Virus record (IMG/VR): IMGVR_UViG_3300002494_000025
Span: 62,001 to 126,000 of that record
Length of the DNA: 64,000 nucleotides
Strand: one strand, 5' to 3'
Source of the DNA: a virus
Shown: in pieces, positions 7,738-54,723 of the stretch
Layout: each line of letters opens with the position of its first letter
How positions within the stretch are numbered: position 1 is the stretch's first letter
The notes under the pieces: generated by a model
Database searches by the model: none
What the model saw: the letters and a program-made list of their open reading frames with translations, nothing else
What the model was told of the DNA's origin: nothing
Position numbers and translations under genes: made by a program

Positions 7738-8373
7738 TTATTTATGTTTTAATTTTGAACGTTTTAGTTTCTCAATATATGTTTTTAACACATATTCTTC
7801 AAAACTATTCAGTTTACCACGGTTTTCCAATTTCTTTAAATAATTAACACTTTCAGTAATAACATACTATTTGTCAAATCCCGGAATTGATACTACATCA
7901 AAAGTAATAATATCGAATGTATCAGGAACTACATATATAACACTTTTACCACTTATATATTTTTCTTCAACATCACCTAGAGCTCTCAATGAAATACCAA
8001 CTGATACTTTTGAATTTAACAATTCTTGTAGTATGACACCATTTGGAGTATTAAGTGGAACAAATGATCCATATATTATTTTATCTTTTAATTCCAGATT
8101 CGTAATAAGATGTGATACTTCAGTCAGTTTGATGTACTACATACGATTTGGATCATTTGTTTCTGGATGGTCGAGTTCTCCCATCAGTCTCTTCTATTCA
8201 ATTTCTTTTTGTAATCTTGGATAGTTTCTTGTAAAACATTCTTTTGGATAGTACCTGTTATTGTTATTTACGGTTTCAAGTAACATAAAGATCTATTTAT
8301 ACTTTTTTCCATTTGTTCCATCTATACTTGACTATCCCATGTTTTCAACTATGACAGTGTGTCTGTTTGGCAT
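7738..8373 (-). CDS. Prohead maturation protease (T4 gp21-like), 211 aa, five TAGs
   Basis: Serine protease that cleaves the scaffold and capsid N-termini during head maturation. In order: NNNRYYPKECF (family: NRNGRYYP), KRLMGELDHPE with the catalytic histidine, LTEVSHLIT, IYGSFVPLNTPNG, and VSVGISLRALG with the catalytic serine. The end resembles the PSxxAY segment, here GFDK*YV with TAG at the conserved alanine (7867-7869). Length fits gp21. The start is an ATG 6 bases after GGGGGTG. Under the standard code the gene would break into small pieces. It is the last gene of a minus-strand operon with three baseplate-type genes. Confidence 0.82.
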
Positions 8374-8396
8374 TGGTTACACCCCCAATTGATATA

Positions 8397-10121
8397 TTAT
8401 CTTTGTAAGAACGTTATGTAGTTATTTATATTACTAATGAGTGTTAAATCGAACACTGGAATTTGATATTCTGGTATTCTTACGACTTTTAATGGGTAGT
8501 TAGAAGTATTCGTATGTAAATACAAATCAATTGATTTTATCCCGTTAAGGGATGAATATAGTTGTTTTTGTATATTGTACTATGAAATTTCAATATACTT
8601 TAAGACTTTAGATTTTTGTAATTCCATATTTAAGTTTATCAACAGGTCTGAAATTGTTTTCACCATTTCTTGTTGTTTAACATATTCTGGTATGTATTCT
8701 ATAGTTCCTGTTAAGTACAGTAAGATTTCTTGCTATTCTTGTACAGACACGATAGTTCCAAATGGGACTATTTTTGAGAAATAGTTTTTAATGATTTGTA
8801 TATAATCATTCTTTCTGTTTTGAGAAATGTTATCAATAAACTTTACATATATTGTAATCAGGTTTGAGTATATTGTGTTATCATGTACGATCGTGTATCT
8901 AAAGTTTATATCGTTGAGGAATGTGTTTCCAAGATATTCCATGTGATTGTTGAAGTCGTCTTTAGTAATCTAGTAACCAAATGTACGGTTAACACGAGTT
9001 GCGTTTAGAATGTATGTATCCAAACTTTCTCTGTTTTTTCCATTTGTAATGTCTTCATGTGATATGTACGGTTGGTAGTAATAAATCATATTTGGGATTT
9101 CGGTATCTGTATATGTACCATACAACAAATTGTAAATGTCATTTTTATTTTTATCATTTAAATTTGTATTTACCATGTTATTTTCATCAATATTTACATA
9201 TCTGAAAACACCCTGGTTATCGATGTATTCAATGTACAGATTATACGATATTAGGTTTAACGAGTTTCTTTCAACGTTACCACCAACGCCATATGTAACG
9301 TAGTATGTTATTTCAACAGTGTAATTTTTTGGTTGTTTGTAGTTGAAAATATCCAACTATATTAATGAAAATGTTTCATTACGTTCAGAATAATTAATTA
9401 AAAAGTAATATTTATATTCATTTTCCTTTTTTAATTCCAATTCTTCGTACAATTCAAAAATATTTTTCTATACCTTTGCAGGATACCAGTGTTCGTTATC
9501 GAACGTTACCCGCTAAGTTATTGTATCCGGTAATAGATACTAACCAGTTGGTATTGACTGTATGATTTTTTGTTCCACATAGTTACTACCACTGAATTCG
9601 AAGTAATCAGTTATTTTTTGTATTTGACTAACTGTAACTGGAAATGTGATTGAGTAGTTATTATCAATAATTGTTTGGGAGTCAACGGTGATATCCTATG
9701 TATCAATTTGGGTATATTCGATGTTTTGGTTTTTACTATATGACAACAACAAATTTGATAGTTTGATATTTACATATGAACCCGGGTTAAGGGTAAGTGA
9801 TGATGTTATATCCCCACTGTTGTATAATTGTGGGTTCGGGAAATAAATTGTAACATAGATGTTTGATGTTGGTGGAAACTACCACAATCTATCGTGTGGG
9901 TATAAATCTAGTATAGAATGAACATTTTCGGGATCAGTTGCACTATCGATAAATTGTTCGTTGAACTAAACATCTATGGATTCGTTTAAGAATGTCTATA
10001 GATAAACGATCTATGATACCAATGAATTAATTGCAGATGATTTTGATGTATCTAAATTTGGGTATTGGTTTTTCAATGATACTAAAAGTTCTTCTTTGAT
10101 TTTATCTGGTGTTATATTCAT
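8397..10121 (-). CDS. Baseplate wedge protein (gp6/J-like), 574 aa, ~12 TAGs
   Basis: The start follows GGGGTGAACACA. The N-terminus (MNITPDKIKEELLVSLKNQY, then a helical segment with TAG twice) and NIYVTIYFPNP resemble the opening of gp6/baseplate J proteins. The long remainder is beta-rich with many aromatic and Asn residues. The reading frame is continuous from 10121 to TAA at 8397 only if about a dozen TAGs are sense. The assignment is by overall pattern and position between a spike-like gene and the protease, so the family is moderately certain and the gene boundaries are more certain. Confidence 0.6.
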
Positions 10122-10140
10122 TGTGTTCACCCCTTACATG

Positions 10141-11400
10141 TTATAGTAAATATAATTTTGAATTGGATTGGACAGTAAGTTCATTTATTGTGTTTAATAA
10201 TTGGGTTTTTATTTCATTAGATAAATTAGAATTATTAACCAGGGTTGTTAAAACCGATTTAAGATTGTTAACAAATTCATTCAAATCTTTTTTACGTACA
10301 ATCTAATATTCATTCATTGCATCGTTTAACTTGTTAGTTGTTAACATGAATTTATAATTGTTGTCATTTGAGTAAACTGAAAATTTGTTAACTTTTAGAG
10401 AGTACTCATGTGTATCTATGTATATACAATGCTATTGTTGGTTATAGTTTTCGGATGACATGTTTATAGTGTCCTATGAAATACCAACGGAATTCGTCTA
10501 TTTCATCTAAAAGGTATTTGTTGTAAAACTAACACTTTGAGTATTACTGTTGAGTGTGTTTGTATTGAGAGTAATATTATTTTGCTATTTTATTTCCTAT
10601 GTATTACCGTTTGTTGTTATTGTATTAGATATAAGGTTAATTGAGTTTGTTGATGATAAAGTTTTATCTGTATCGTTGACAATTTTTCTTAATGTTTCCG
10701 TGATATTTTTACTTTGGTCGAAAATAATATCACCTGTAACTTCTAAATTACCATACAACTTTAAGGTGGTATTGTTGGTTTCAATAGATACTTTATTTAA
10801 TGTAAAAGATGCACTGTTGGTATTGACTACAAAAAGATTATTTGCGAACTTATACTTCATCAGTTCATTTTTATCGTCAAATATCAAATTGTGTTTTTGT
10901 GTTCTTAAAGTTAAACCATTCAATTGTATGTTTGGATTGTCATAAATCTATAAATATCTTGTGAATGTAGGATTACCAAAATAATATACACGATTAAAAT
11001 TTTGTTCTACCACGTCTTTACCAAAATCCAAATTGTTGTGAATGTTGTTAATAGTTTTTCCATCAGAAATGAATATATTGAACGGTATGTAATAGAAATC
11101 GTTATCATAGGTAAGTCTCAGTACCACAACATAGTCATTGATTTGTGGAATGGTGATGAGATTACCCAACAATGGTTTAACAAGAATACCGTCGTTTGTG
11201 TTTGAACACAGTTTATGGATATAAACTGTGATACAACCGACACAGTACAATTGTTTGTCAAGGTTATTATTAATAACTCTACCAATGTACACATTGTCGA
11301 TTTTGTAGAATGTACTATCATTAAAAATATTTTTAACATCATCATTAAAGTTGTAGATTTGGTTTATGTAATACTGGAAATCGAAATCCAGATTTGACAT
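10141..11400 (-). CDS. Baseplate spike-like protein with OB-fold start, 419 aa, eight TAGs
   Basis: The N-terminal ~110 residues (YIGRVINNNLDKQLYCVGCI, later LITIPQINDYVVVLRL) look like the OB-fold of gp5/gpV-type baseplate spikes: a strand after GxV, then a PxxGDxV-like turn. The middle is beta-rich, and a helical C-terminus follows after the TAG at about 10309. Spikes pierce the host envelope at the tip of the tail tube. The start is the ATG at 11400 after AAGGTGATATAA. The frame is open to TAA 10141 only with TAG as sense. Family assignment is tentative. Confidence 0.5.
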
Positions 11401-11417
11401 TTATATCACCTTTTACA

Positions 11418-12786: not shown

Positions 12787-14064
12787 ATGTAGAAAGTGTT
12801 AACAAACATAAATAGTATCCAAAATATTGAAAGAACGAATCAAAACGAAATTACCATTACAACAGAATCTTCAAAATCAATACGATACAAATTTAATGTG
12901 GATACAAATAAAATACCCAACGGTAAAACATAGGTTGGGTTGTATCGAGATATTATCGAAAATGTTGAGACGGGGGATGTGGATGTAATTCAGGATCATA
13001 ACGATATTACAGATTTATTTGTAAAACACTTGATATATCGTCTATTTATAAATAACGGTATTACTGAAACTGTTGATTATGACAGATATTTCAACATACC
13101 ATAGGATTCATAGTTTCTTAGTATGATAAAACCATACAAATAGACCTCCGAATCTGAATTTATATTACCACTTTCAAAATATCTTGGTATTCATTCCTGG
13201 GAAGTGGGTATTGGACATGAGAGTTGGGATTCTCCACAAAATTTGTATGGATTTACATATAACGAATATGGTTTTCCAATACGTGTCACAACTGGTTCGG
13301 GTGGTTCTAGTACATATGTACCACATTCCTCCCTTCAAATTTATAAGGATACAATTAAAAAATATCATAGTGTGAATGATTTGTAGTACAATGACACAAA
13401 TATTACACACCATAACTCGTTAATTTGTAGAATTCCACCACAATTGTTACAATATGGAAATTTTTATCAAATTAGTAGTACTCAAAAAACATATTCGTTG
13501 TATTCGTACCGTAAACCAGTTCAGGTATTTTTTGTTTTACCTACACAGTATTTACTTGATGATAATACTGTTGTTACCGATCCAATTACAATTTTAAACA
13601 AACTGAAAACAGGAGAGTATGTTACTGAACGCGTAATTGAGTGGTTACCGTATACGGGAAATAATGTACTCTATGGTATAAGTAATACGTTGATAAATCA
13701 GATGAAGGTCAGTTACATCATACCTGAATTCATAATGGTGCAATAGATTTTTGAACCATTTGAGGCAAACTTTACATGGAGAGAATTTGGTGTATTGGCA
13801 GGATTTAACACATTTGTCAGTACAAGTGGTACTACAAATCTTAACACAATTGAAACGGAAGAAAATGAACCAAATGCAAGTTTGATGGCATGGATGAAAC
13901 ATAACAATGTAAATACGACAATCTCTGAATTCCACCCACTTGTGTATCCAAGAGGTACTTTTATCGATTACAAAGTTCATAAAGCAATAAACAAAACAAG
14001 AAATATGCGAATTACAAGACAAATAATCTTTGGAATTCTCAATATATCGTCACAATTGTTATGA
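12787..14064 (+). CDS. Structural protein, 425 aa, second codon TAG
   Basis: The ribosome binding site AAGGGGG precedes ATG TAG AAA GTG: the second codon is TAG, so the protein starts M-A-K-V. Six more TAGs occur before TGA at 14062. The central part includes HSWEVGIGHESWDS and a beta-rich region (VQVFFVLPTQYLL), and the last 30 residues are basic (KTRNMRITRQ). There is no clear family. Position in the virion operon suggests a tail or neck component. Without TAG decoding, translation would end after one residue, so expression depends completely on the suppressor tRNA. Confidence 0.72.
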
Positions 14065-14085: not shown

Positions 14086-14877
14086 ATGATAAAGACATAT
14101 TTAGTATCAATGCATGGACAAATTCAGACTCAAGGAGGTGTAAAATATCCTGGTTTGTACAATATAATTGGACAGTCAGGTAACGATGAGGTACTTACTT
14201 CGTTACTAAATGATAATAACCCGCAATCTTTTGTGTCAACACTAAAGTCAATAAATTCCACATTAACTACAAATAGAGGTATATCACCAATAAGATTTAA
14301 GTTATAGGATAACGATGAATACGATTTAAGTTATCCTCTTGCCATACCATCATAGTAGAATGTTACATATTATTCGTTTCGGAAATAGTTGAAACTTTTA
14401 TTTACTTCGGATGTTTAGTCTGAACCACAAACAATCACCATAAAGAATTTAAGATTTTATGTTGATACTGGTTATACGGTAACAGATTCCAGTGGTAGAC
14501 AGATTCAAACTATTGGAGAAGGTATTAAATTACAAGTACGTACGTCTGTAAAATATATTCCACCATCAGTGGATGATGTTACAAACGGGTTAAATACTCA
14601 AGAAGACAACAATACATAGAATCAAACAAGTCCGTTAGAAGACTAGTTGACGTTTACTGTAAATAATCCACTGATGTTAACTAGTAATAATGTTGTATGG
14701 ACAAGTAACAACCTAAATTCACAAGTTACCGGTAACACTGAAAGTGAAAAATTGTAGAGTTTTACTCAGAAATGGTTTGGTACACAACCATATGTTTACT
14801 TAACTGTTGGATTATCGTCAAATGCAACACCAAAAAACTATTCATTTACTATTTACTTTGTATACGATGAAATCTAA
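14086..14877 (+). CDS. Structural protein, 263 aa, eight TAGs
   Basis: A start ATG after GGGGGTGTATTAGG. The frame continues across eight TAGs to TAA 14875. The product is beta-strand rich with many Thr/Asn/Ser, and ends PYVYLTVGLSSN then FTIYFVYDEI. Not recognised. Located between two other virion-type genes with short spacers, so it is probably co-translated with them. Confidence 0.68.
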
Positions 14878-16753: not shown

Positions 16754-17743
16754 TTATTTATTTTGGTTGTCTAAATTTATATCTAACTGATTTATAAATT
16801 GTTCATCCATTATTTCATCAATTATACCATCACTGTTTAAGTCCTCAAACTTTATGACTGTTTCGGCATTGGGGGTAAAGTATTTTCGGAAGTATATTCT
16901 ACTGATGTTGTCTAAGTACTTTGTCAATTTTAAAACATCATTTATTGACATTACCTTTTTTGTGTATTTTCTTTTATATTTAAAAATATGTTTAAATGAC
17001 AAAATTATAAATTTATTGATTGTTAACAGAGTGGTAATTACATATTCACTATCATGTTCAGTGACACTTGTAAGATACCGTGAATATAGCGTTTTAATGA
17101 AATGTATAAAATTTTGTGAGTCGTTGATTTCAAACTGTTCTAAATCATTCATAAGTTGGAATAACGTTTTTCTATCTTTATTTATATTATCAAATTTATA
17201 TAACTGGAGGTAATTATGTTTTTCGTCATCTATTGTTATGTATGTAGAAGGAATACTTGTTACTTTATTGGTTGAATCGTTATGTGTCACAATGATATCT
17301 ATGAGTTCGTCATGTTCGATATCATCGTTGTCTTTTTGTGTTTGTGATAATGAATAAAATGATACTACATAGTTTGTTTCTTTTACAAGATTCTATATTT
17401 TGTATTTAATTATATTTTCTGCAATCTATGTTAGGTATGAAAACAGGTTTTTATTTTTGTTGAATCTTGTTAGCTAACTTAGTTGATTTGTTAAAATATC
17501 ACTTCTTAGTTCTTCTCTCAATTCATATTCGTAAGTTTTATCTACAACCAAATTATATTTGTTCATGTAGTATGGTAATTTTTTGTTTAGTACACCCTCA
17601 TTCAATTGTTGTATATATTTCAACTACTTTTCTTTTTTGGATTTATCATTACTAAACCACAATGACACGATGTACTATTCATTAAAGTAATAATTTTCTC
17701 TATAACTTTTTTTATCATTTTTGTTTTTGTTATCAATACTCAT
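16754..17743 (-). CDS. Sigma-like late transcription factor (gp55-type), 329 aa, five TAGs
   Basis: The start follows GGGGGTGTTTTATTG. The N-terminal third contains ELREELRSDILTNQ and FNKNKNLFSYLT-A-IAEN, then IKYKI. This resembles sigma region 2 as found in T4 gp55 and similar phage factors (F-x-YL-x-x-IA-x-N). A SFYSLSQTQKDNDD linker and a helical C-terminal half follow. If correct, it would direct host RNA polymerase to the motif B promoters. The gene is preceded by a motif A promoter, as expected for a factor made before the late genes, yet it carries five TAGs and so needs the suppressor tRNA. The identification rests on a short motif and is tentative. Confidence 0.5.
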
Positions 17744-17792
17744 CAATAAAACACCCCCATTTCGATTTTTTTTTATATATATGTTACCTTCC

Positions 17793-17821
17793 TTTAATAA
17801 TATGTTGAACTTTACAATTTT
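17793..17821 (-). promoter_or_regulatory. Motif A (early-type) promoter
   Basis: On the minus strand AAATTGTAAAGTTCAACATA then TTATTAAAGG. It faces the sigma-like gene. Confidence 0.7.
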
Positions 17822-17863
17822 CATTAACGAAATGATACTAAATGTTGATGAGTGAATCGATAT

Positions 17864-18465: not shown

Positions 18466-20577
18466 TCACAAGATATCAATATTATCATCGGTGAATTCTT
18501 CATCTAAAAACACACCATACTATACTTGTATTATGTAAATTGATTGGTTTGTTTGTTCATATTGTTGTATGTATTTTTCGGATTTTTTAACTTTCTATAA
18601 TATCTCTTTTAGTTCGAATTGTATACGTTCTTTTATCTATGACACATCAAATTTATATGTTTTGATACGTGTTGTAACATCGATAACATCGGGTATTTGT
18701 TTAACATTTTCAAGTTGATGTGACTAAGTATCGTACATATCTTTCAAAAATGAACGGATGATTGATAAATCAAATTTATAATCCTTATATTGTTCCGAAA
18801 GTTTTTTAACTAAATTGATTCTATTATCTTTTGTGAATTTAATATCTATTGGTAGTTCTAATTGTTTTAACATTTCAATTCTTTCTTCACTAAATTCTTT
18901 TAATAGGTCTTTTACAATATTGTGCATGTTTTTGTTAATCAATGAAAATTTATCACGGTCGACAAGTTTTACCAATTCATCTGAATTTCCTGTTAGTTTT
19001 CTTAGCACAACACCCTCGATTTCTTGTTGTTTTTCATCTGTGATGATATCGTTGACATACTATATTAAAATATCTTTGATATTCAACATATAGTTACTTC
19101 TAACATAGTTCTATAACATCTCCCGGAGTTCTTTTATTTGTTGTCTATATTCTTTTGGAACTCTGTTTAATTTTATTGTTATCTATTCAAAAACTGTTAA
19201 ATCCTTAAATTGGGTAGGAACTGATATATCAGGTATCTCACTTAGTTTTTTGTTCAAGAATTGTTTCAATTCATTGAGGTGTTTTTCAATTTCAGTTTTA
19301 ACTTTAGAGAGGTATTTGTTAATATCGAAATACTCCACAGTATCAACAGACCAAGTTTCAGAGATTTGTTTCTATACAATATCATCATTTTCAAGATCTG
19401 GTACATACTATGTTACGTTCACTGTTATTGGTTCAGTTGATTTAAGTTCTTCATACAGTGATAATAAATCCTTATCAAGTTCATTAATATCGATGTTACT
19501 ATCTGTAAATCGTGGGAGTGGTCTTAAATAGATTGTTTTTGATGTTGAACTATTGTATTTTATTGTGTTTGTGTATAACGTTGATACCAATTCACACTCC
19601 CATTCGATTTGTTTACCATAATATTTGTTAAGATATTTGTCAAAAATATTTTTATATTTTTGATACAATGTAGTAACAAACTATGTCTAACTTCTAATGG
19701 CGTTATACTGTGGGATTTTAGGTATTTCTTTCCAGTTATACCATGGTATCTATTTACCTCCGAACGATTTACGACGGATTGTATATATTTGTCCATTTGT
19801 ATCGATACCGAAGGAAAGGTTCTAAACACCATCGATTTTGATTGATGTTAATAATGGTTCAGTTTCATACAGTATCTATTCAATATAGTCAATGAATTCA
19901 TTTACTGGGATATCTTCAATATGTGAAATTTCAGTTAATAACTATTCTGACACATTCTATTTAGATACATTTCTTTTTGGTTTTGGTGTGAATATATCAT
20001 CACCATATTCTTGTTTTAGGAAGTTAACATACTCTACAATGAGATCAAACAATTGAAGGACTGGTGTTGCAAGTAATTGTTTCTATGTTTCATAATCACC
20101 ATTAAAGAGTGCATTTCTCAGTTTTGTCTAAGAGATTTCATCGTCTGATTCAACATTTCTTGGAAGTTCTTCAACTTTAATTTTGTCACTAAGATTTACA
20201 CGTTTTAATTGTCCTTCATATGTTTGTTTTCTATCAGTTCCACAGTAAACCTTTACGATTTCAATGTCATCATATTTATTCTTTATGTATTCGCTAATAT
20301 TTGGTATATATCCAACATTGAATACTTCAACGATCTAACTTTTATTGTATTTATGTTTTAAATCGTTTATGATAGCTTTAATAAATAGTGTTCTAAGTTC
20401 CTAGTCAAATGGATTTTTGTAGACATCTTGACTTGTTTTACTACCCTATATTATCTATACAATGACAACATCTATATCATTATCTCGGAATGCAACTTCC
20501 AGTAATTTTTGATGCTATTTTGTAACACCTTGGAATCTACCAAGTATTAGTCCACCTCTAAATATTTTTTTATCCAT
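18466..20577 (-). CDS. NMNAT-like nucleotidyltransferase fused to RNA ligase, 703 aa, ~23 TAGs
   Basis: Two enzymes in one chain. The N-terminal ~170 residues have GLILGRFQGVTK*HQKLLE (the GRFQP-xxx-H nucleotide-binding start), KTSQDVYKNPF and IS*TKLRNAL (family ISxTKxR), as in NadR/NMNAT-type transferases. Further on are ligase motifs in order: motif I SIKIDG (KxDG, the AMP-accepting lysine), EWECELV, motif IV EIEGVVLRK and motif V ELVKLVDRDKF. This fits RNA ligases that repair nicked tRNA or other RNA; the first domain could make NAD or another nucleotide cofactor. Start follows AAGGTGGTG. Under the standard code it would be shattered. It lies directly downstream of the terminase gene. Confidence 0.78.
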
Positions 20578-20614: not shown

Positions 20615-22237
20615 TCAAATTTTCAAAATCCAATCATAGTCATTATTGGTTATGTTTTCAGTCTCATTATTTACTTCTTGTTGTTTGTTTTTATTAATGA
20701 TTTTTTTACTCTCTTTTAAGTTTATTCTGAGTATTGTGTTTTCAATATGTTCAAATGTCTATTTTAAATTAATCCGATTTTGTTCAATCAACTGATTTCT
20801 CTAATAATATGCAAATGACAACTACATTACAAGGTCGTCATTATATCCATGTTTTGCTTGTGGTTTACCACCACGGTATACAAAGACTAGTAACTCACTT
20901 ATAATTCTTTCACTTCTGATATTTTCTGGAAATTCAGTAACGTATTCCTTCATCTATTTCAATATTAATGGTCGGGTAATTGCAGTAGTAATGATACCGT
21001 ATGTACGAGTTTGGGATCGTTTTTCGAGATCTTGTGTGTTGATTTTCTATTCTTCTTTTGTACTGGAGATGTATTTGTCGATGAACAAATTTGAATAACC
21101 TTTTTCACGTAGACGTCTTGCAACCTATAATCCCCATCCACCGGTAACTTCTATCTATATCGACTATGTGTTGTAATATTTACCAATCTCTATTAATACA
21201 TCCTAATATTCAACATCTGATATATGTTTACTTGTAAAATCCTATACAACTTTACCATCTTCGTCAATTACAACGAACTAAGACTAGTCATTTGACATTC
21301 CAGAAGCAACGTCTACGCCTATGATATACTATTTATTTTCCTTCACTTCTTCATACATATAAACTTCCCAACCGTTAATTTCAAATGAACTTATTGGTTT
21401 TTGTTGTGACTTTTGTAATTTTTCTAGTGTTACAGAATCCAAGTATGTGTCATTAGATGAAATGAAATGTAACTCTAATTCTTGCATTATTGCAAGATGG
21501 TCATTACCAAGTATTTCACATTGTTGTTTGTACCATGTATCGTCATAATACGGAATATCTCTCCAGTGGAATCTGAACAATGTATATGGTGGGTTATCTG
21601 AATTTATCTACTATTCATAATATCTATAGTAATCATTATCCACACCATTGGGTGTTGAATTGAGGATAATACCCCATGGAATACCAGAATTCTATATCGT
21701 AGCAAGTGTTGGTGCTAACTATTTTAACTATTCTTCAAGATTTGGGACAAACTACTACTCATCTACAATAACAGTTGACAATCTAAAAGAACGAAACGGG
21801 TTATTCGTATTACCCTATCGGATTACACTACCGTTAGAAAAATGGAGAGACTTTTTAAGAGGTCTCTCCAACTTAGGTAACCATGAAATTTTTGATAATT
21901 CGGAAATCTCATACATTTCTTTTATGTCTTGTAAGAATTGGTTTGCTTTATCTTGTTCAATTGATAAGATACCGATATAGTATCTACTATAAAACAACTA
22001 CAACCACAGTGATAATGCTTGTAATGTAGTGGACATACCTGTTTGTCGTGATTTTAACACCAACATCTTATGTTTTTCCAACCATAGTCGAATAAATTCT
22101 TTTTGTTTTTCAAACATTTTAAATGGTACAACACCCATTCTTTGATTAAAAATTTTTATATAATTTTCAATAAAATAAATGGGGTCTGTTTTACATTTTA
22201 AATATTCTTGTATGTTATCGAGTTTTGTATTTTCCAT
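20615..22237 (-). CDS. Terminase large subunit (T4 gp17-like), 540 aa, ~22 TAGs
   Basis: The DNA-packaging motor. The ATPase part has LKSRQTGMSTT (Walker A, residue ~67), NGSVIR*G, then STVIVDE**FVPN (Walker B, TAGs at 21752-21757, where relatives have DE-AA-F or DE-CA-F), and ILNSTPNG, the coupling motif. The RuvC-like nuclease has IIGVDVASG, VVIDE, EY*DVL, IEVTGG and NDDLVM*L. Order and length fit gp17. Many TAGs stand at conserved alanines. Start follows GAGGGGTATGTCGA; the gene ends with TGA 20615. Confidence 0.92.
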
Positions 22238-25318: not shown

Positions 25319-25348
25319 TAATTTAATACTGTCAACGAGGTGAGGTTG

Positions 25349-37643: not shown

Positions 37644-37698
37644 TGAAAATAAAGTATGAAAAAACTTCTTGATTATACCAAGTAAAGGGGTGTCAACA

Positions 37699-43700: not shown

Positions 43701-46700
43701 GGATGTTAAAACATAGTTAGAAAATCAAAAACTAACCCTTAAAGAACATGAAGAACAAATTGGTTCAACACCCAAGGATATTAAGTCTGTTGTAGAAAAA
43801 GTATCTACACTAAAGGGAACTCTCATTATAACTATTTCTTCAATGTAGAGTATAATCTTAGATTTCATAACATTCTCATTGACTAAACTGAATGAACACA
43901 TATTCAGTAATAATCTAATCAAAACGTTGACTGGATCTGTAACATTAATAAACTTATTACCCACAATCACCAATATCATTATCAAAGATATACCAACTCT
44001 TTTAACATCTGTCATGTCAAGTATCACTTCAAATATTTCAAATATTCTCGATACACAAATAAAGGAACTTACTAATTTACAATTTCAGGACTTAGTAAAA
44101 ATTATACAAGATGTTTTTGGTACTAATGAAACAAAAAAAGAGACACAAGAAGAACAGAAACCACCTAAACAATTATCAGAATAGGTTATCAAATTAAAAA
44201 ACACTACTGTTGATTTAATCTCATCAACTTGGATAACCGTTATGGATATAATTGATTCTATCTTAGGAACATTTAATTTCCTTCTAAACAACTCTGTTAC
44301 AAGAGGTTTATTAAATTTTGTTGGTAATTAGTAGGTAGTATTATCCACCATATATATGGGACTACTTACAACTGTGGTTATACCAAAAATAATCAAATTT
44401 TTTACATCAACTATCCCAAGTATACTTAATGATGCTATTAGTTATGTAACGGATGTCTTACCAAAACAATTCAAAAAGGTATTAATATCTCTTAAAAGTG
44501 GTAAAATCGAAACTAAATCCATTAACATACAAGAAATCATATCAACTATAGTAAATACTGTTTTGGATCTAACTGGTAAGATAATAAAAAACAATTAGCT
44601 TGATACAGATAAATATCAAACGATGATTATGAGTGACAATGACTTTCTTAAATCCATCGGATCCATAATGTTATTTATGACACCGGCATTGTCATTCTTT
44701 GCAATGTCACTTATCAGTAATCTTATGACACCGATTACCGATATGTTAACAACTATATTCAAACCAGAAAACATACAAGGTATTGTGGAAAGTATGACAG
44801 TCTCAGATTTATCCAAGATCGTAACTACTGTAGTAACATCTGTTTTTAACATAATCACATCCGTAATTTCAGCATAGTTCAATATGGTTACAAATATGAA
44901 CATTATTACATCTGATCCCATAACAATGTATATCATGTTGGGATTACAAACAGTACTAATGGTTGAAATGATAGTTCTAATGGATTCTATAAAAGGACAC
45001 GTTAATACAATCTTGTCTTCAATTGGTAGTTTGTTAAGTACAATGTTCAAACCAGAAATTGTAGAAGGCGTAATATTAGACACATCATCAGATAAATTGT
45101 ACGATTTATTCCAAAGTATTGTTACAACAACTGTTACAATGGTTACAAGTTTAACTACTAAAGTGTTTAATTTGTTGTTTGATGATAAAACATCAAATGA
45201 ACTTATAAATAGACTTAACCCATTGAATATGATTACAAATTTGGTTACAAGTCTTGGAAAACTCTTTATCGGTGGATGGTTTGTTATTAGTCTTACAGGT
45301 GTATTCCAAAATATACTATCACAAATCGGTTTGTTGCTAAATAAAATTACTACTGATATAGATGTATCAAGGTTTGATGTTAATAAACTCGATACGTTGA
45401 TTAATACTGTTGTAACCACAACAGTTACAGTTGTGAGTAATATACTTACAATGTCTTTTAGTTATCTTACAGATGAGAAAAGTATAGTTAAAATTCCAAT
45501 AATTAGTGATATACAAAAGTAGATTGTTACATCATTTATATCATCTGTAATAAGTGGTTTATTAGAACCATTCAAATCAATAGTAACATCAATAGTCACA
45601 TTGTTTGGTTGGATGTTTACAGAAAAAAATATTAATAATATGGTTAATAAAATGAGTACTACAACTGTTGATACAATCATAACAGATATTATAAATACCA
45701 CACTGACGATGTTAACCAATTTAATAACAAGTGCGACAAATATACTTACAACAACACTGTTCAATATATCATCGACTGGTGGAATATTCGGATAGCTTAT
45801 GGGTTTAATTATCGATACAATGATAGGTGGATTTATGACATCATTTATAAAAAATATAACAACAAATCTGTCAACTATATTTAACAATATCACAACTCTA
45901 ATAAATAGTCTTATGATTAAACTATCCAGTGATACGACATTATCACAACATGTTGAAGAGAATGGTACAACAGTAATTAATAATATACTTACAGAAGTAG
46001 TAAACACTGTATTTCCAACAATGCAAACAATTATAAGTATTGCATTACAAAGATATCAACAATCAAATAAAGGAATGTTTGAAAGATTACTTAATAATTT
46101 TCTTGGATTTTTGTTCGGTTCTACAAGTGGTTCATGGGATCCAATGAGCGACCTTATCAACAATATAATTGTAAATATACCAACATTGTTTACCCAAATG
46201 AGTACTTTTATAAATAATTTATTCACACAACTGTCAAATGTTGATATACTCAAAACTGTTTTGTCTGAAAATATTGACCTTGTAAAAGATATTATAAAAT
46301 CAATAGTTGACAACATTGTTAGTATTACATTAAAGACCACATTACCAGAAATTGTTAAAATGGGTATGGAAGGTAAAATAAGACGTAAGAAAAAAGATAT
46401 ATCACCAATTGAAGAGTTCTTTAACATCTTTGATAACACTATTGGTACTGAGGATATGTTTATGGAAGATATATAGAAACCAATTTTATCAAACATACCA
46501 ACCATCTTTGGTTATATACAAACATAGTTTAACAACATCTTAGACCCGAAAATTTTGAATTATTCACAAATACTATAGGATAGTGATACTGGAAAAACTA
46601 TTATAATCTCACTGTTTAATGCTGTAATTGATTCAATATTCAAGTCTTTCTTTAGTATGGTGTTTGATAAGGATAATTTAGAGAAAAACATAGAACTTTT

Positions 46701-48270
46701 ATCCGTTAAAAAGAAAACCACACAAACATGGTTCTTTATACCAATTAGTGAAACAATAGAGGAGATAAATCCATTTGTAACATTGACAACAGATTTATTT
46801 AGTAAACTACCAATTCTATTTGATAAAGTCATTAATGGGTTTGATAGTTTAATTACACAACTAGTATCAAGTGATACATTTAAGAATATTGCAACAGATA
46901 ATAAAACGATTATAGAAATGACAAAAATATTATTTTCTTCTGTTCTAGATATGATACTAAAAACTGTAGTTGGTACACTATTGACAAATGCAATTGAAGG
47001 AAAATTGAATGTAATTCAAAAAAGACTTGTTACAGAAACAGTTACTACAACCAATGAATCTGGTAATACTGTAGTACAAACTATACAGAAAGAAGTATCT
47101 GAAAAAATAAACCCATATATTGATACTGTGTTTACACCAATTCTAAGGAGACTACCACAAATATTTGAATTGATTTTTGGTACAACAGATAAACCAGGTG
47201 CGTTTGACAAAATACTTAATAGTATTGATATTACAAAAATCGTAACAAACGACATTACACTACAGACAGAATTTATTAAGAGTATTTTTAATTCAACACT
47301 TGACATGATTTTTAAAACATTATTACCCGGGTTAATTAAAGCAGGTATATCCAGGAAGTTTAGACAAACAACAACAACGACAACCGGGTGGTGGCTCTGG
47401 TAGAAAACTGAAACTAAAACAATGGATAGTTTCGTAGAAAATGTGTAGAAACCAATCTTAGAAAAATTACCAAGTATATTCAATCGTATATCAGGTGTGT
47501 TTGGAACTATACTTGATAATCTGAATGTTAATGATATGTTTAAACAGGATACAGATTTACCTAAAACATTTGTAAAAAGTATTTTCGATAACACAATTGT
47601 TTTTATGTTCAATACTTTAGATAATTTACTCAACACCGAAAGTTCATGGAGTATTGATAGATCGTTATTAGATACCATCAATGCTACAAAAACATCACTT
47701 TTGACAAGTTTTCAAAACATGAGTACTGCAATTGATACTATTATCTCATCAATTAGTACAACAATACAATCTACACAACTTGATACAATACATATTAACA
47801 ATATCGTAAGTAATCTTGTACCAAGTATTTCAAATGTTTTCAATCACATGATTACAATTATTATGGATTCGGGGGTTTTGGATGCATAGATTAACGTAAA
47901 TGTTGTAAACGGACTTTGGAATGTACTTGAATAGTTTGTAGATGAATTATCATCACATGCACCAGATATCGCAGGTTCTCTGTTTGGTTCTTTAACGTTT
48001 AATTTTGATTACGACGAAATGAAACGAAAGTTAACAATGACATTCACTAACATATCTGAAATTACAACGGAGTTCGAACGACAAAAACTCGAACTTATGA
48101 CAGAATAGAATACATATTTATCCCAGATACAATCAGATGTATAGGAAATTAAAATATTACTTAGTCAAATTAAAGATAATATCCTTAACAATAATAACAA
48201 TAATGGTCGACAACAAGTAGTATACCAAAGTAGAGATGTTGTTAACTATATAACATCCGGATTGAGATAA
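40756..48270 (+). CDS. Tail tape measure protein, 2504 aa, several dozen TAGs
   Basis: Sets tail length and fills the tube. The frame runs for 2505 codons from an ATG after AGAGAGGTGATAATA to TAA 48268. Near residue 100-220 there are strong hydrophobic helices (LFGSFFKVFNKLFNFLDKF, KPFTWLGKLITPLLGWL). Near residue 675-700 is YTGSGRTDEI*GVVHKGEYVIP**L, the gly-rich tape-measure motif whose relatives read AGxVHxGExV, so the TAG at 42796 is at a conserved alanine. The remainder is a huge alpha-helical, Ile/Thr/Asn-rich array. In codons 1-208 there are 11 CAA/CAG and only two GCN. It predicts a very long tail if about 1.5 Angstrom per residue applies. Confidence 0.88.
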
Positions 48271-48865: not shown

Positions 48866-50305
48866 ATGACAAAAGATACAGTTGGTTTAATACTTGAAAG
48901 AAATTGGAATACTTACAAAAACGTTATTGTAGAGAGTGCATTCAAAAATTATTATGGTAAACAGACAAATAACGTCCAGAAAGAAGTATTAAAGATATTA
49001 CTTGAAAATACAAAAAGGAACATGATTACTGAAGGTCTTACAACATCTACACAGGCATCTATTGCAGTTCCTGTTATTCTTGGTCTTACAAAGAAATTCT
49101 TCCCAAAACTTATTGCGAACGAGATCGTTTCTGTTCAACCACTTACAAGACCAACTGGTATTGTGAAGTTCAAGAAAATTAGATTCCAGGATGGTCGTGA
49201 GCTTGCAAGTGATAAAACAGATGGTCTTCTCTCAACTGATACATCATTTGGTACTGAACAGTATCAATCACTTACACAACGTGTTTCTGTATCAATTGCA
49301 GGTGGTGCATCAACAACTGTTACATTGAATGGTGTACAACCACCATTTAAGGGTGTACAGATTGGTTCATTTATGGTTAAATTACCAAATGGTATAACAA
49401 TACCTGAAGTAAATGGTACCATAGTTGTAGATGAGTTTAAGATTACAATTAATTACTACACTGGTGTAATTACTGTTCAAAATACGGGTAATAGTACCAC
49501 CCCAGTTAGTAAAACGTTTGATGTTATTTACAACACCGTTGCATTTGAAACGAATTCCCCAGACACAATCGGTAGAGTATTCTTTGACTTTGAAAACATT
49601 CCAGTTAATGCAATAACAAGAAAACTCAAGGCCAGCTGGACATATGAATTCTTAGAAGATATTCAGGCCGAACTTGGTGATCTTATCAATTTTGAGCAGG
49701 AAGCATTTGAAGATGTTTCTGCAATAATTGCTGCTGAAATCAACAGAGAAATAATTATGGATATAATCAGTGGTGTTCTTTCGTATGGTAGTAATATTGT
49801 TGAATGGCACTATAATCCAGCAACATTGAGTGGTAACAACTGGTTAACAGCAGAAGCATACTTCAGAACGCTTATACACAAAATTAATGAGGTTGCTGGT
49901 AAGATCACAAGAGCAACAAAGAGATTTGAACCAAACTTTATAGTCGTTTCACCATACACAAAACAGTTCATAATTAATGGTCTTACACAATATGAATGGA
50001 GACCATCCGAGAATGTTACTGATGCACTTGACTATGCAAAGATTGGATTTGCACTCAGTGGAACAATTTCTGGTAAATGGAATATGTACGTAACACCAAG
50101 TATTCCTGATGGTTATATTATTGTTGGTTATAAGGGTTCTGGTGTTGCAGACAGTGGTTATGTCTATGCACCGTACATTCCATTGAAGGCAGTACCAATC
50201 ACATACGAATCAATTCCTGGTCTCTACTTCTACACAAGGTATGGTAAAACTATGTACTCCCCATGGTACTACGGTCTTGTAAAGATTCCTGAACTTCTTT
50301 CATAA
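48866..50305 (+). CDS. Major capsid protein (T4 gp23-like), 479 aa
   Basis: Forms the icosahedral shell. The diagnostic part is at residues 75-125: ITEGLTTSTQASIAVPVIL, then TKKFFPKLIANEIVSVQPL and RPTGIVKFKKIRF, corresponding to the gp23 segment with PxLIAxxxxxVQPMxxPTG. The central part carries an insertion-like beta domain (GVQPPFKGVQIGSF) and the C-terminus has WYYGLVKIP. Unlike its neighbours it has no TAG at all; its ~28 alanines use GCN codons. Start follows AGAGGGGGTATATAGCA. Preceded by the scaffold-like gene and ended by a strong terminator. Confidence 0.88.
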   Translation: MTKDTVGLILERNWNTYKNVIVESAFKNYYGKQTNNVQKEVLKILLENTKRNMITEGLTTSTQASIAVPVILGLTKKFFPKLIANEIVSVQPLTRPTGIVKFKKIRFQDGRELASDKTDGLLSTDTSFGTEQYQSLTQRVSVSIAGGASTTVTLNGVQPPFKGVQIGSFMVKLPNGITIPEVNGTIVVDEFKITINYYTGVITVQNTGNSTTPVSKTFDVIYNTVAFETNSPDTIGRVFFDFENIPVNAITRKLKASWTYEFLEDIQAELGDLINFEQEAFEDVSAIIAAEINREIIMDIISGVLSYGSNIVEWHYNPATLSGNNWLTAEAYFRTLIHKINEVAGKITRATKRFEPNFIVVSPYTKQFIINGLTQYEWRPSENVTDALDYAKIGFALSGTISGKWNMYVTPSIPDGYIIVGYKGSGVADSGYVYAPYIPLKAVPITYESIPGLYFYTRYGKTMYSPWYYGLVKIPELLS

Positions 50306-50330
50306 TAATTGACACGATTAAATAAAAAAG

Positions 50331-50365: not shown

Positions 50366-50396
50366 TCAAAATTAAGGATATCGATGAACTTTAAAT

Positions 50397-50410: not shown

Positions 50411-50457
50411 TGTGAAAGAAAGACTAATCATTACTTTGTTATGGGGGTGTCATTCTA

Positions 50458-53400
50458 ATGAATTTTGATGTAAATAAGTATCTGAAAATACTATTTGACA
50501 ATGAAACAACAATAATCGATGAATTAAATGAATCCGGTGATAAAACAGATATTATTACTGAGGATGACGATACAAGTGATGATACATTAACTAATGATTG
50601 GATGAAATATGTTGAGAGTATTGAACTGACAACTAAACCATTTGATGAATTCAAAGATATAGTATAGTGGATATTGGTTAAAACAGCAAATAATAATGTT
50701 ACTGCAATACCAATTGATAAAAGTGAAAAAACATTCGAGTCTGTTTTACAAAAACATTCTAAAGTTTTAAGATCATCAAGTAGTAGTGTAACAGGTGCTA
50801 TAAACACTTTAAAAACACAATTAAATGTCATAGGTTTCATATTACCAACTTACATCAAGATACATTTTAAGGATAAGTTTCTAAAAACTACAAATATAAC
50901 AAAAATACCATTTGATGAATTTAAAACCTTCTACGTGTTTGTCTTGTACAATATAACCGGTATTTCAGTTAAACAAATTAAAGAGTTAATCAAAACTGAG
51001 ATTGATCCAGATGGTAAAATTTTGAATGATAAAAACAATCAAAGAATGTTACATCAATATCACGAATTTCTACTCACATACGGTAATAAAAACAAACCTT
51101 CAATGTTCAACTTCAGTAAATTTGAAATTCCATTTAACTAGGAACTAACACAAGAAGCTGAAAAAACTAGTGACAAAGATGTTGTAACTACAAGTAAACC
51201 CAAAAAATTCACACTTTATCAAAAAACAAAACATTCAATTGTTCCGGATGAAGAGTTTGTAGGTAGTGGTTAGTTATTTGATGATACAAACAAAATTCTA
51301 TAGTACATATTCGAAATGAATTCTAATAACATGTCCCAGGATAGTGTTCAACTCAAAATGTTTAAATAGATATTTAACAGACTGTACAAAATTCAGATTG
51401 TCGATACAAAGGACCAGGAATAGATTGTTTAGTTACTATTCACAATTTTACTTTACATAAGTCGAAAAGATATTGGGATTGAAAATAATACAATTGAACT
51501 ATACAACGTGTTGTCAAATGAAAGAATGGTTATAGATAATATTGGGGGGTTAACTAAATTATCAGATTTACTCAAAGGATTACAGTTCGATTTACTTGTT
51601 CAAGATATAGAAGTATATACAAAAACTAAGAAAGTTGAAAATACAATACTTCTTAGTTTATTATATGAAAATTTCAAAGATAGTAGTTTCTACAACATAT
51701 TACGAAAAGTTTCAAAGTACGTGGACGGTAATGCACCAATTTATGTGATCCAAAATGAAGAGATTATGAAATAGCTTTAGAACGGTAAAATGGATTAGGA
51801 TACATTCTTGAGTAAATACCCAGACGAACAACAAAAGTATTTTATCAGATTGGTACTGGCAAAAAGTGGTGAAACTAAATTTACACCCGATGTGGTTGTT
51901 ATAGTACCATTTAAACAAAATGTAATTAAAACTCAATCAGTAACACCAATTGGTAACTATAATTACTATGTTGTTACTGATGAAATTCAAGACCATGAAC
52001 ATGGAACATTAAAAAATCAATACATTAATAGTTACAACATTAAGTATTCAAACAACACGTCAATAAAACCAGTTGAACTATAGTTCGTTTCTGATAACAA
52101 CACATTATTGTCTAATTCATAGTATGTTGTTAAATTTGAACACGATCTTAATAATGTTGATGATGTTGATGATATGATTGTGGATACAGTTGATAATCCA
52201 TTATTAATTACCGACCTTGATAGAGAAGAAATCGGATTTGGTGGTATATTTGGGTTCTCAATTAAAACAGTTGGTGATGGCGGTGCAAGACTTGGTAGAT
52301 TGTTACATACCGTTGTTGATGAAGATATCCCAACTTTTAATGAAAATCGAAATTATATGACTGACATACTACAGACAATTATCAAAGATAACAGGGATAT
52401 AACTCATAACATACTCCACGAAAATGATAAGAGTATTTTGAAATATATATCATCCAAATAGCTTGATATTATTACTCAGAAATATGGTATTACCGGTGTG
52501 TATAACATTTTTAAAACACTGAGTGAAAGTCTATTTAGAAATAAACAGTATACAAATATATTCTTGGAGACCATGTTACGATAGGTATTAGATGATGATG
52601 TACTCTCAAAAATGATTATTGAGAGTTACAACAACAGTGATATCGATGAGGATATATTCAGTCATTTATTCATTCAAATACTATCAGAACTGTTATTCGA
52701 AAAATGGGTTAAACATGTTATTACAGAAAGTGAAGAGAATATAGTACATGGTGAGATATCTAAAGAGGAGAAACAAACAATTATTAGTAGGGTAAACTCA
52801 TTGTGGAATACATACATATATAAGAGTGTTACAGAGAAAAATTCAAAATATAAATTTTCCTTCTCCGACTTATATAACCCAGATACCATTAAACAACTAT
52901 AGTCTATATTTGTTGAACAATTCCAACAGTTAAATAATCAAAATGAAACCGAAATTGTTAAATCTATAAACTCTATATATGTAGACCTATACAAAGAGTT
53001 GGTCTTACCAGTTTATAACAATACAGGACAGTTCATAAATATGTTTACAGAATTTGTAAAGAAATATGTAGATAATATTAATATCGATGATGTTGACGAG
53101 TTAAACAGACAAATAAAACTGGATATTATTAGTTAGATTAAGTCCATGATTAACAAACATGGTTCAGATTCACAAGTCATAAGGTTACCACAAATTACAG
53201 ATGTTATCTTCAATGATTGTAACCTAACAGAAAATACAGAACTGTACAGTATTATCAAAGGGTTAGTTGGTAAAAACAGTTTGAACATCAAAGAGTTTTC
53301 CACATTTATTTACAATAAAATTCTAAAGAAAATTACATATTTGTTGTTCATAATTAAATTGTACACATGGTACGTCACAAATGTATTGTTACTTCTAACA

Positions 53401-54723
53401 GTCCAAGATTATAATGTGTTTATCAAATCGATATTCATTTAGGGCGCGAAACAATTTAACACAATAAAAGTATTTAATAATGACAATATGAAAACCAGTT
53501 TGGATTACAAATAGTTAATACAACATTAGAAATCATCAAAAGACAAAATATCGTTACATTTTGTCAAACACATAAGAGTTAACATACCACTCTTTACGTT
53601 AAGTATTCAAAGTTCAGAAAAACTGATAAGTTCAATAGAAAAGAACGTTAAACAATTGTAGAAAAAAATAAATATTACAAATCCAGAAACAATTCGACAA
53701 CTTCTGATATCACTTACAAAAAATATGATTAGTGTGGAAATTAAGAAAGTTGGTAGGGGTACTGAAACAGTTGAACACAATACTGACAAAGTTGAGAATA
53801 CAATGAACAAACTATTAAACAAACTTTCTAATAGCCAAGACATATTAAAACTGAGCCAATTGACATCCACCGATATAATTACTATTTTAAACACAGATGA
53901 AAATATTTTTAATAAATATCTGTTATAGAACTTATATACCAATACTGATGTCATTCAAAAACTTACAAACTCTATAGAAAATGCATTGTATGATAAATTG
54001 TCAAATGTAGACCCCAATAAAGTATATATTGTCAAAACATATATGAATGTGAAATATCGTGGACAAGAGGATAATTCATTACCACTTCAGATCAAAGATA
54101 CAAATATTACAATCTTGCAATAGGAAAATGCAAAGTCGATAATAAATGACTTAATATGGGAGTATTATGAACAACTAATTAATGGTAATGCATGTCAATT
54201 ACTATTGTGGTAGAATTTCAATCATATATTTGATATTACATCAGTATCAAGTAAAAGTAATCAAACTGATGATAGAATTACGGTGTCGGTGGTTTATAAT
54301 CAAGCAATACAATTACTGATACAGGCAGAGTCTGATATGTATATAGATTTGAAGTTTGTTGTATATCCACTTGATACAACAAATAGTAGTTTAGAAAATA
54401 CTGATACAATTCAGAAACCATTAGTTATTACATCAAAAAACATACCACAATTGAAAAGTATAAAAATTTCTAAGACACTCATAAATTTTGGAATTGCATT
54501 AACATTAAAATCTGAGATAAGATCGGGTACTTTCGGTTAGGATGAAAATATCAGGGTAGTTGTGAGTAAAATATTTACTGATATGGATTCCGGATTTGAA
54601 CTTGTAATGCCGTTGTACACATCAAAAGTAAAAGTTGATAATTCAGTAACAAAAAATCTTGATAGTAGTATACATGATATACTTGATACAGTTGTAGACT
54701 ATATAACAAGTTATAATATATAA
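50458..54723 (+). CDS. Very large virion-type protein, 1421 aa, ~24 TAGs
   Basis: The start follows GGGGGTGTCATTCTA. Twenty-four or so TAGs are crossed before TAA 54721. The first 100 residues are acidic, then comes a mostly helical chain with IGFGGIFGFSIKTVGDGGA around residue 580 and a membrane-like stretch (YLLFIIKLYTWYVTNVLLLL) around residue 960. No enzyme motif was seen. It is the only gene between the capsid terminator and the next terminator, with its own motif B promoter. Candidates are an internal head protein, an ejection protein or the missing portal fused to other domains. None is supported by a motif. Confidence 0.68.

What the first reader, a model, noticed from the sequence alone, without database searches (positions are those of the whole stretch)
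7738..54723. UAG appears reassigned to alanine, not glutamine, in the virion genes
Seen: around twenty large genes are continuous only if TAG is sense, and they end in TAA or TGA. TAG falls at positions where families keep alanine or a small residue: terminase Walker B DE**F (21752-21757), terminase nuclease EY*DVL (21203) and DDLVM*L, tape measure EI*GVVHKGEYV (42796), sheath FV*FFFPW (36915), protease GFDK*YV (7867), nucleotidyltransferase IS*TKLR. In the hub-like protein, four TAGs lie inside a hydrophobic N-terminal helix. CAA/CAG are frequent and GCN rare in TAG-rich genes (11 versus 2 in the first 208 tape-measure codons). Established: described TAG-recoded phages mostly use glutamine. 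Inference: this phage uses TAG for alanine. I cannot say from memory whether UAG-to-Ala has been reported elsewhere.
Basis: partly seen in the sequence, partly recalled or inferred. Interest (0 to 1): 0.97.

Follow-up and report, generated by a model that had tools for sequence, protein, structure and literature searches.

The report
Phage reads UAG stop as alanine
This phage, probably of a heat-loving Fervidobacterium-like bacterium, reads the stop codon UAG as alanine with its own specially built tRNA, apparently because its genome avoids the letter pair GC that every normal alanine codon needs, so it shows a possible chemical reason for a genetic-code change.

Summary
In the window 23 ORFs of at least 100 aa carry two or more in-frame TAGs (248 TAGs; one of them, overlapping the RNA cassette, is probably spurious). 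A Codetta-like column test with independent homologues puts Ala first: TerL and protease +6.7, next Ser -14.1, Gln -31.9. All genes combined (46 columns), Ala leads Ser by about 31 nats and Gln by about 55, and wins 99.6% of bootstraps. It lies in a three-RNA cassette (tRNA-Ala-UGC, tRNA-CUA, tmRNA), all three with G3:U70, and its promoter and ends were duplicated from the tRNA-Ala gene. A second new finding: the roughly 103-kb phage genome almost lacks the dinucleotide GpC (567 seen, 2154 expected), in every codon phase and between genes. All four alanine codons contain GpC, so UAG is a GpC-free alanine codon; that causal link is inference. tmRNA and tRNA-Ala point to a Fervidobacteriaceae host. 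UAG=Ala is reported in green-algal mitochondria; I found no report for a phage or bacterium.

The parts
56731..56806 (+). tRNA with anticodon CUA; acceptor stem GGGGGUG/CACCUCC with G3:U70, discriminator A73, G20, encoded CCA: decoder of UAG as alanine
   Evidence: ARAGORN (labelled Pyl from the anticodon alone); Rfam tRNA 67.0 bits; cloverleaf; only copy in the record
56483..56558 (+). tRNA-Ala(UGC), likewise G3:U70; with about 60 nt downstream 91% identical to a Fervidobacteriaceae tRNA-Ala locus
56813..57172 (+). tmRNA, tag ANEYIPLAA*, itself an AlaRS-type acceptor; 82-84% identical over its length to tmRNAs of several genomes in the family of the Fervidobacterium MAG (tag ANEYVPLAA)
56390..56456 (+). 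leader (promoter region) of tRNA-Ala, first copy
   Evidence: direct repeats of 41 nt (95%) and 35 nt (91%), spacing 253-254
56643..56710 (+). leader of the CUA tRNA, second copy: the CUA tRNA gene arose in a duplicated tRNA-Ala cassette
20615..22237 (-). terminase large subunit (T4 gp17-like), 22 in-frame TAGs
   Evidence: phrog_2 2e-39; PDB gp17 4e-23; column test
18466..20577 (-). 703-aa nucleotidyltransferase-domain protein, 23 TAGs
   Evidence: phrog_395 2.5e-12; IS*TKLR is Ala in 4 of 4 homologues
7738..8373 (-). head maturation protease, 5 TAGs
   Evidence: phrog_207 4.9e-33; GFDK*YV column Ala 0.79, Ser 0.21
35658..37526 (+). tail sheath, 9 TAGs
   Evidence: phrog_23 1.5e-24; FV*FFFPW column Ala 0.45, Val 0.37, Gly 0.18
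37669..38415 (+). head-tail adaptor Ad2, 8 TAGs
   Evidence: phrog_211 5.4e-16; TAG at residue 189: Ala 0.90
40756..48270 (+). tail tape measure protein, 2504 aa, 41 TAGs
   Evidence: TAG in EI*GVVHKGEYV is Ala in 4 of 4 homologues
30048..35492 (+). 1814-aa protein in the virion gene block, 26 TAGs
   Evidence: no family found
50458..54723 (+). 1421-aa protein in the virion gene block, 24 TAGs
   Evidence: no family found
25340..28345 (+). 1001-aa protein, 14 TAGs
28357..29919 (+). hub-like protein, 8 TAGs, four of them in a hydrophobic N-terminal helix
38876..40708 (+). 610-aa protein, 8 TAGs
8397..10130 (-). 577-aa protein, 12 TAGs
10141..11400 (-). 419-aa protein, 8 TAGs
12787..14064 (+). 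425-aa protein, 7 TAGs
14086..14877 (+). 263-aa protein, 8 TAGs
16754..17824 (-). 356-aa protein, 5 TAGs
48866..50305 (+). major capsid protein (Gp23), no TAG, 26 GCN alanine codons (5.4%, the highest among recognised core genes): internal contrast
   Evidence: PF07068 170 bits
3994..5187 (+). RecA-like gene, TAG-free
   Evidence: PF00154

Best explanation
A T4-like myovirus (core about 103 kb, 28% GC) that most likely infects a Fervidobacterium-like thermophile reads UAG as alanine. The decoder is a phage-encoded tRNA with anticodon CUA. Its acceptor end (G1:C72, G2:C71, G3:U70, G4:C69, A73) and G20 are those of tRNA-Ala, so host alanyl-tRNA synthetase, which ignores the anticodon, should charge it with alanine; it then competes with host RF1 at UAG in the virion genes. 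Shown here: the frames, the alanine profile of the TAG columns, the tRNA with its identity elements, its duplicated tRNA-Ala leader and ends, and genome-wide GpC depletion. Inferred: aminoacylation and decoding in vivo, and the reason. Alanine is the only amino acid all of whose codons (GCN) contain GpC, so a genome that loses or avoids GpC loses its alanine codons; a CUA tRNA of alanine identity supplies a GpC-free alanine codon, used mainly in virion genes.
For: Column test: Ala best at 24 TerL and protease TAG columns (Ala +6.7, Ser -14.1, Gln -31.9) and in the combined set of 46 columns (Ala +4.3, Ser -26.4, Gln -50.3; 9962 of 10,000 bootstraps). Single columns: Walker B DE**F Ala 0.70 and 0.99, residue 210 Ala 0.96, 332 Ala 0.91, 358 Ala 0.85. 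At TerL and protease columns where homologues keep at least 50% Ala, the commonest phage codon is TAG (8 of 26; GCN 4; Gln 1). tRNA; leader and end duplication from tRNA-Ala. Of 44 IMG/VR CUA tRNAs with a similar D-arm only one (L112) shows a G3:U70-type pair, with an odd T-loop and a U discriminator; no Ala-type CUA tRNA in about 85,000 species genomes. GpC: 567 observed versus 2154 expected in the core; depleted in all three phases and between genes; codon-junction G|C 89 versus 462 +/- 19 expected with protein and codon usage fixed; 370 of 513 coding GpCs are alanine codons; the lowest of 118 other viral loci is 0.68 against 0.26 here. No phage AlaRS or release factor found. Host: tmRNA up to 84% identical, tRNA-Ala with its flank 91%.
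Against: No protein or aminoacylation data. Some TAG columns are not alanine in homologues (TerL residue 318 Tyr/Phe, 428 Lys, 80 Met); outside TerL the lead over Gly is small. The column test rests mainly on one gene. The GpC link is correlational, from one genome without close relatives. TAG-free genes are just as alanine-poor, so the relief applies only to part of the genome. The anticodon arm of the CUA tRNA is closer to tRNA-Trp than to tRNA-Ala, so its full ancestry is mixed.
Confidence: 0.93

Rival explanations
1. UAG is glutamine (code 15), as in other described TAG-recoded phages.
For: Known in phages and shown by mass spectrometry in crAss-like phages (PMC9523058); phAss-1 was annotated so (PMC10607447).
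Against: Gln scores about 39 nats below Ala on TerL and protease and about 55 on all columns, while the CAA/CAG control gives Gln in the same genes. The CUA tRNA carries G3:U70 and A73. Gln would put four polar residues in the hydrophobic helix of 28357-29919.
Confidence: 0.01
2. UAG is another small residue (Ser or Gly) or a mixture of small residues.
For: Ser is second in TerL, Gly second in the independent genes.
Against: Ser is 20.8 nats below Ala in TerL and protease; the tRNA identity set is that of alanine, and seryl tRNAs have a long variable arm that this tRNA lacks (established knowledge; one search shows a five-base variable loop).
Confidence: 0.04
3. GpC depletion is real but unrelated to the reassignment; tRNA-Ala simply happened to be the gene that was duplicated and given a CUA anticodon.
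For: AlaRS ignores the anticodon, so a tRNA-Ala copy is an easy source of a suppressor. TAG-free genes tolerate 1.2% Ala without using TAG.
Confidence: 0.35
4. Cause of the GpC depletion, version A: mutation. The phage's own C5-cytosine methyltransferase methylates GpC, and 5-methylcytosine deaminates fast at the host's high temperature, turning GC into GT/AC.
For: The phage encodes a C5-cytosine DNA methyltransferase (PF00145, 229 bits, record 56572-57723 minus). AC and GT are raised (1.25 each). Depletion is at dinucleotide level in every NGCN context. A different phage on the same record, and host-family DNA, are not depleted.
Against: Target specificity unknown; relatives of the enzyme (about 34-38% identical) sit in phages with normal GpC, 0.98-1.54. 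Selection against GpC would leave the same transitions.
Confidence: 0.4
5. Cause of the GpC depletion, version B: selection to escape a GpC-specific DNA or RNA nuclease of the host. GpC is its own reverse complement, so strand bias cannot separate DNA from RNA targeting.
For: Depletion in all codon phases and between genes; GpCs survive in the structured RNA genes (19 in the 690-nt cassette).
Against: The phage segment on the same record (1 to about 25 kb) has GpC 1.2-1.6, although its host need not be the same. I know of no restriction system specific for a bare GpC, apart from relaxed activities.
Confidence: 0.3
6. The in-frame TAGs are pseudogene decay, misassembly or sequencing error.
For: The record is a probable chimera at both ends.
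Against: TAGs fill 23 window ORFs with no TAA or TGA, sit on alanine columns, and come with a cognate tRNA. Silent GpC sites are far more depleted than alanine codons, which an error process would not produce.
Confidence: 0.01

Closest known systems
TAG-recoded (code 15) phages: crAss-like, Lak, Phassvirus (phAss-1, PMC10607447; PMC7886860; PMC9523058)
   Same: TAG is sense mainly in virion and late genes; a phage-encoded CUA suppressor tRNA; no phage-encoded matching synthetase found.
   Different: Amino acid is Ala, not Gln; the tRNA has alanine identity; T4-like phage of a thermophile; extreme GpC depletion; its own tmRNA next to the suppressor.
UAG=Ala code of Hydrodictyaceae/Neochloris mitochondria (PMC6821328)
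   Same: Same codon meaning; a CUA tRNA of alanine type, there phylogenetically closest to tRNA-Ala(UGC).
   Different: Organelle, where the authors infer mtRF1a has lost UAG recognition; here a phage in a bacterium that should still have RF1; no GpC story there.
Alanine tRNAs recognised through G3:U70 and engineered tRNA-Ala(CUA) amber suppressors (classical work, from memory)
   Same: G3:U70 with A73 and no need for the anticodon; the acceptor end matches E. coli tRNA-Ala (from memory).
   Different: Natural and phage-borne; anticodon arm resembles tRNA-Trp (13 of 17 positions).
T4-like myoviruses (gp17, gp18, gp23)
   Same: TerL matches T4 gp17 (4e-23); Gp23 capsid; sheath.
   Different: TerL only about 31% identical to its best GenBank matches; no close relative found in the IMG/VR scans.
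CpG depletion by methylation and deamination in vertebrate genomes
   Same: Dinucleotide-level depletion with raised transition products.
   Different: GpC instead of CpG, in a phage; enzyme specificity unproven.

Membership tests
Code 15 (TAG to Gln) phages | In-frame TAG in many virion genes, which end in TAA or TGA | tested here: met
Code 15 (TAG to Gln) phages | Cognate CUA suppressor tRNA | tested here: met
Code 15 (TAG to Gln) phages | TAG columns dominated by Gln in homologues | tested here: not met
   Gln about 39 nats below Ala, about 55 combined
Code 15 (TAG to Gln) phages | Suppressor tRNA of Gln isotype | tested here: not met
   G3:U70, A73, G20 of tRNA-Ala; duplicated tRNA-Ala ends
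UAG=Ala reassignment | Alanine is the best-supported residue at TAG columns, with working sense-codon controls | tested here: met
UAG=Ala reassignment | CUA tRNA with alanine identity (G3:U70, A73) | tested here: met
UAG=Ala reassignment | Alanine shown in peptides at UAG | not testable with these tools
   needs mass spectrometry
UAG=Ala reassignment | tRNA charged by AlaRS | not testable with these tools
   needs an aminoacylation assay
Pyrrolysine (UAG=Pyl), suggested by the ARAGORN label | tRNA-Pyl structure and a PylRS gene | tested here: inconclusive
   The RNA is a canonical 76-nt tRNA with a normal D-arm, unlike tRNA-Pyl as known; the label follows the anticodon. PylRS was not searched for by itself.
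T4-like myoviruses | gp17-type terminase, gp23-type capsid, gp18-type sheath | tested here: met
GpC-methylating phage | C5-cytosine methyltransferase gene present | tested here: met
   PF00145 229 bits
GpC-methylating phage | Enzyme specificity GpC | tested here: inconclusive
   relatives of the enzyme do not go with GpC depletion; no methylome

The most novel reading that the evidence does not exclude
A genome-wide ban on the dinucleotide GpC (by methylation and deamination in a hot host, or by a GpC-specific nuclease) removed the alanine codons GCN and thereby drove the reassignment of UAG to alanine: a code change forced by a DNA-level or RNA-level constraint that falls on exactly one amino acid.
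Probability: 0.55. Interest if true: 0.97.

Novelty: new variant of a known kind. Interest (0 to 1): 0.93.

Why it matters
Described recoded phages use TAG mainly for Gln and TGA for Trp; a survey of 180 phage suppressor tRNAs predicted Gln, Trp, Ile and Tyr isotypes, none Ala (PMC10879173). Alanine widens what phages can do and warns against annotating every TAG-recoded phage with table 15. The tRNA is a natural counterpart of engineered alanine suppressors, and its origin can be read: duplicated tRNA-Ala promoter and ends with an exchanged anticodon arm. Above all, the GpC depletion offers a concrete, testable reason for a particular codon-to-amino-acid choice: alanine is the only amino acid that cannot be written without GpC. 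Why given codons are reassigned to given amino acids is a long-standing open question.

Tried and rejected
Single-protein IMG/VR scans with TerL, sheath, methyltransferase and capsid found no relative; the DNA polymerase scan found one distant hit, 24%. An exact search with a stretch of the CUA tRNA found none. ARAGORN's Pyl label rejected: canonical tRNA, label from the anticodon. Phage-encoded release factor or AlaRS: none. Methyltransferase as proven GpC enzyme: not established, related enzymes sit in GpC-normal phages. Simple descent of the CUA tRNA from one gene: tRNA-Gly and tRNA-Trp of the host family are equally similar overall (59 of 76), Trp better in the anticodon arm, Ala in the ends and leader, so a mosaic. 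CRISPR spacers against the phage in 20 genomes of the host family, looked for with three 20-kb stretches: beyond the RNA genes only short matches, and no array around the ones looked at. GCN rarity as evidence for TAG=Ala rejected as confounded. Tail C-terminal domain: one homologue only, uninformative.
Full report
What was checked. The window is bases 62001-126000 of a 135,374-base IMG/VR record. Under table 11 the virion genes are broken; with TAG as sense they become single frames. In the window 23 ORFs of at least 100 aa hold two or more TAGs, 248 in all; one, overlapping the RNA cassette on the other strand, is probably spurious. A 2504-codon frame without TAA or TGA has a chance probability near e^-147.

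Which amino acid. TAG was written as X, so that it could not influence the alignments. For TerL, 91 homologues from IMG/VR and GenBank at about 30% identity were aligned, and 36 for the head protease. A Codetta-like score, summed over 24 TAG columns, gives Ala +6.7, Ser -14.1, Val -24.8, Thr -25.4, Gly -26.1, Gln -31.9; 43 of 49 sense codons with three or more columns are recovered by the same method; Ala wins 98.3% of bootstraps; none of 20,000 random sets of non-TAG columns reaches the Ala score. Mean alanine frequency is 0.32 at TAG columns, 0.40 at GCN columns and 0.05 at CAA/CAG columns. The strongest columns are Walker B DE**F (0.70, 0.99), residue 210 (0.96), 332 (0.91) and 358 (0.85). 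As a separate test, sheath, head-tail adaptor and nucleotidyltransferase (15 columns) rank Ala first (-0.5), Gly second (-2.0), Gln -14.9; all columns together give Ala +4.3, Ser -26.4, Gln -50.3 and 9962 of 10,000 bootstraps. IS*TKLR is Ala in 4 of 4 homologues. In the tape measure EI*GVVHKGEYV the TAG is Ala in 4 of 4 homologues, among them a Marinitoga phage.

The decoder. The phage carries three RNA genes in a row: tRNA-Ala(UGC) 56483-56558, a tRNA with anticodon CUA 56731-56806, and a tmRNA 56813-57172. The CUA tRNA has acceptor stem GGGGGUG/CACCUCC, so position 3:70 is G:U; the discriminator is A73 and position 20 is G (read from the sequence). By established knowledge G3:U70 is the main identity element of alanyl-tRNA synthetase, with A73 and G20 contributing, and the enzyme does not read the anticodon. 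All three RNAs of the cassette have G3:U70, tmRNA being an alanine acceptor too. No AlaRS or release factor is encoded on the record. Among 44 IMG/VR CUA tRNAs with a similar D-arm only one shows a G3:U70-type pair, with an odd T-loop and a U discriminator; a pattern for alanine-type CUA tRNAs finds none in about 85,000 species genomes.

Where the tRNA came from. The leader of tRNA-Ala (56390-56456) is repeated before the CUA tRNA (56643-56710) at 91-95% identity, spacing 253-254, and the first 26 and last 30 bases of the two tRNAs are 85% and 83% alike, including four bases past CCA. The anticodon arm instead resembles tRNA-Trp of host-family bacteria (13 of 17 positions, loop CUCCAAA to CUCUAAA). 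Best reading (inference): a duplicated tRNA-Ala cassette whose anticodon arm was exchanged or rebuilt.

In the core of the record (27,000-130,000) GpC occurs 567 times where 2154 are expected, observed/expected 0.26, against 0.74 for CpG. By phase the ratios are 0.28-0.44 (codon positions 1-2), 0.14-0.17 (2-3), 0.12-0.21 (codon junction) and 0.19 between genes. With protein and codon usage held fixed, G|C at codon junctions occurs 89 times against 462 +/- 19 expected. Of 513 coding GpCs 370 are alanine codons: GpC survives where it must spell alanine. All four alanine codons contain GpC, and no other amino acid has this property. GCN alanine is 1.07% in TAG genes and 1.20% in TAG-free genes; the TAG-free beta clamp has none in 422 codons. 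TAG adds 1.85% to the first class. At TerL and protease columns where homologues keep alanine, TAG is the commonest phage codon (8 of 26, GCN 4). The major capsid protein (Gp23) uses no TAG and 26 GCN (5.4%), as if the most abundant protein could not afford suppression (inference).

Cause of the depletion: open. The phage encodes a C5-cytosine DNA methyltransferase (PF00145, 229 bits; record 56572-57723, minus strand, outside the window). If it methylates GpC, deamination at high temperature would produce the pattern, with AC and GT raised to 1.25. But related enzymes occur in phages of normal GpC, and selection against a GpC-specific DNase or RNase would look the same, because GpC is its own reverse complement. 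I give the two versions similar weight.

Host. The tmRNA is 82-84% identical over its full length to tmRNAs of several genomes in the family of a Fervidobacterium MAG (tag ANEYVPLAA there, ANEYIPLAA here), and tRNA-Ala plus about 60 bases downstream is 91% identical to a tRNA-Ala locus of that family. The 3' end of the record carries an anaerobic ribonucleotide reductase and a MutS that is 75% identical to the same MAG's. A Fervidobacteriaceae host is likely; no CRISPR spacer was found in the parts searched.

The record is probably a chimera. Bases 1 to about 25 kb (mostly 39-46% GC, normal GpC, own TerL, portal and tail genes) belong to another phage, joined within a tail gene whose domain is 85% identical to one at 129.5-130.0 kb; 130.4-135.4 kb looks like host chromosome. 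Neither join lies in the window, and all statements on GpC concern the core.

Comparison with the literature held here. TAG=Gln is established in crAss-like phages (PMC9523058) and assumed elsewhere (PMC10607447, PMC13037316); Cook et al. (PMC11210395) tabulate code 15 and code 4; a survey of 180 phage suppressor tRNAs predicted Gln, Trp, Ile and Tyr isotypes, none Ala (PMC10879173); the Codetta screen reports new codes of arginine codons only (PMC8629427). UAG=Ala is published for Hydrodictyaceae/Neochloris mitochondria (PMC6821328). The library is partial, so absence is not proof.

Verdict. UAG=Ala in this phage: about 0.93-0.95. GpC avoidance as the driver: about 0.55. Shown: frames, columns, tRNA anatomy, duplication, depletion. 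Not shown: peptides, charging, methylation, order of events.

Noticed in passing
record 27000-130000, including the whole window: GpC depleted to 0.26 of expectation (567 of 2154) in all codon phases and between genes; alanine codons near 1% in nearly all genes of the core.
   Followed up: yes
record 56572-57723 minus (window -5428 to -4277), L004:16572-17723: Phage-encoded C5-cytosine DNA methyltransferase, TAG-free, specificity unknown; candidate cause of the GpC loss.
   Followed up: partly
record 1 to about 25000 and 130400-135374: Probable chimeric assembly: another phage at the 5' side (second TerL, portal), Fervidobacterium-like NRDD and MutS at the 3' side; the 5' join is inside a tail gene sharing an 85% identical domain with 129.5-130.0 kb.
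   Followed up: partly
56813-57172: Phage-borne tmRNA, up to 84% identical to tmRNAs of Fervidobacterium-family genomes, directly behind the suppressor tRNA; may rescue ribosomes stalled at UAG (guess).
   Followed up: partly
55189-55872 minus and 54764-55192 minus: The first gene ends TAG followed directly by TGA, the second has a TAG 11 codons before its TGA: the best candidates for TAG still used as a stop, or as a tandem stop.
   Followed up: no
55995-56230: Two copies of a repeat (GGTGAAACTTACACCCTCGTTCTTTTTGATTTTCCTGGTATAAACTAACCAGGTTA) with TTGGGGATTTG repeats between them, upstream of the RNA cassette.
   Followed up: no
62331-62687: STIV B116-like protein (PF08960, 63 bits), a family named after an archaeal virus.
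   Followed up: no
record 57840-59108 minus: Beta-clamp protein of 422 aa without a single alanine codon and without TAG.
   Followed up: no
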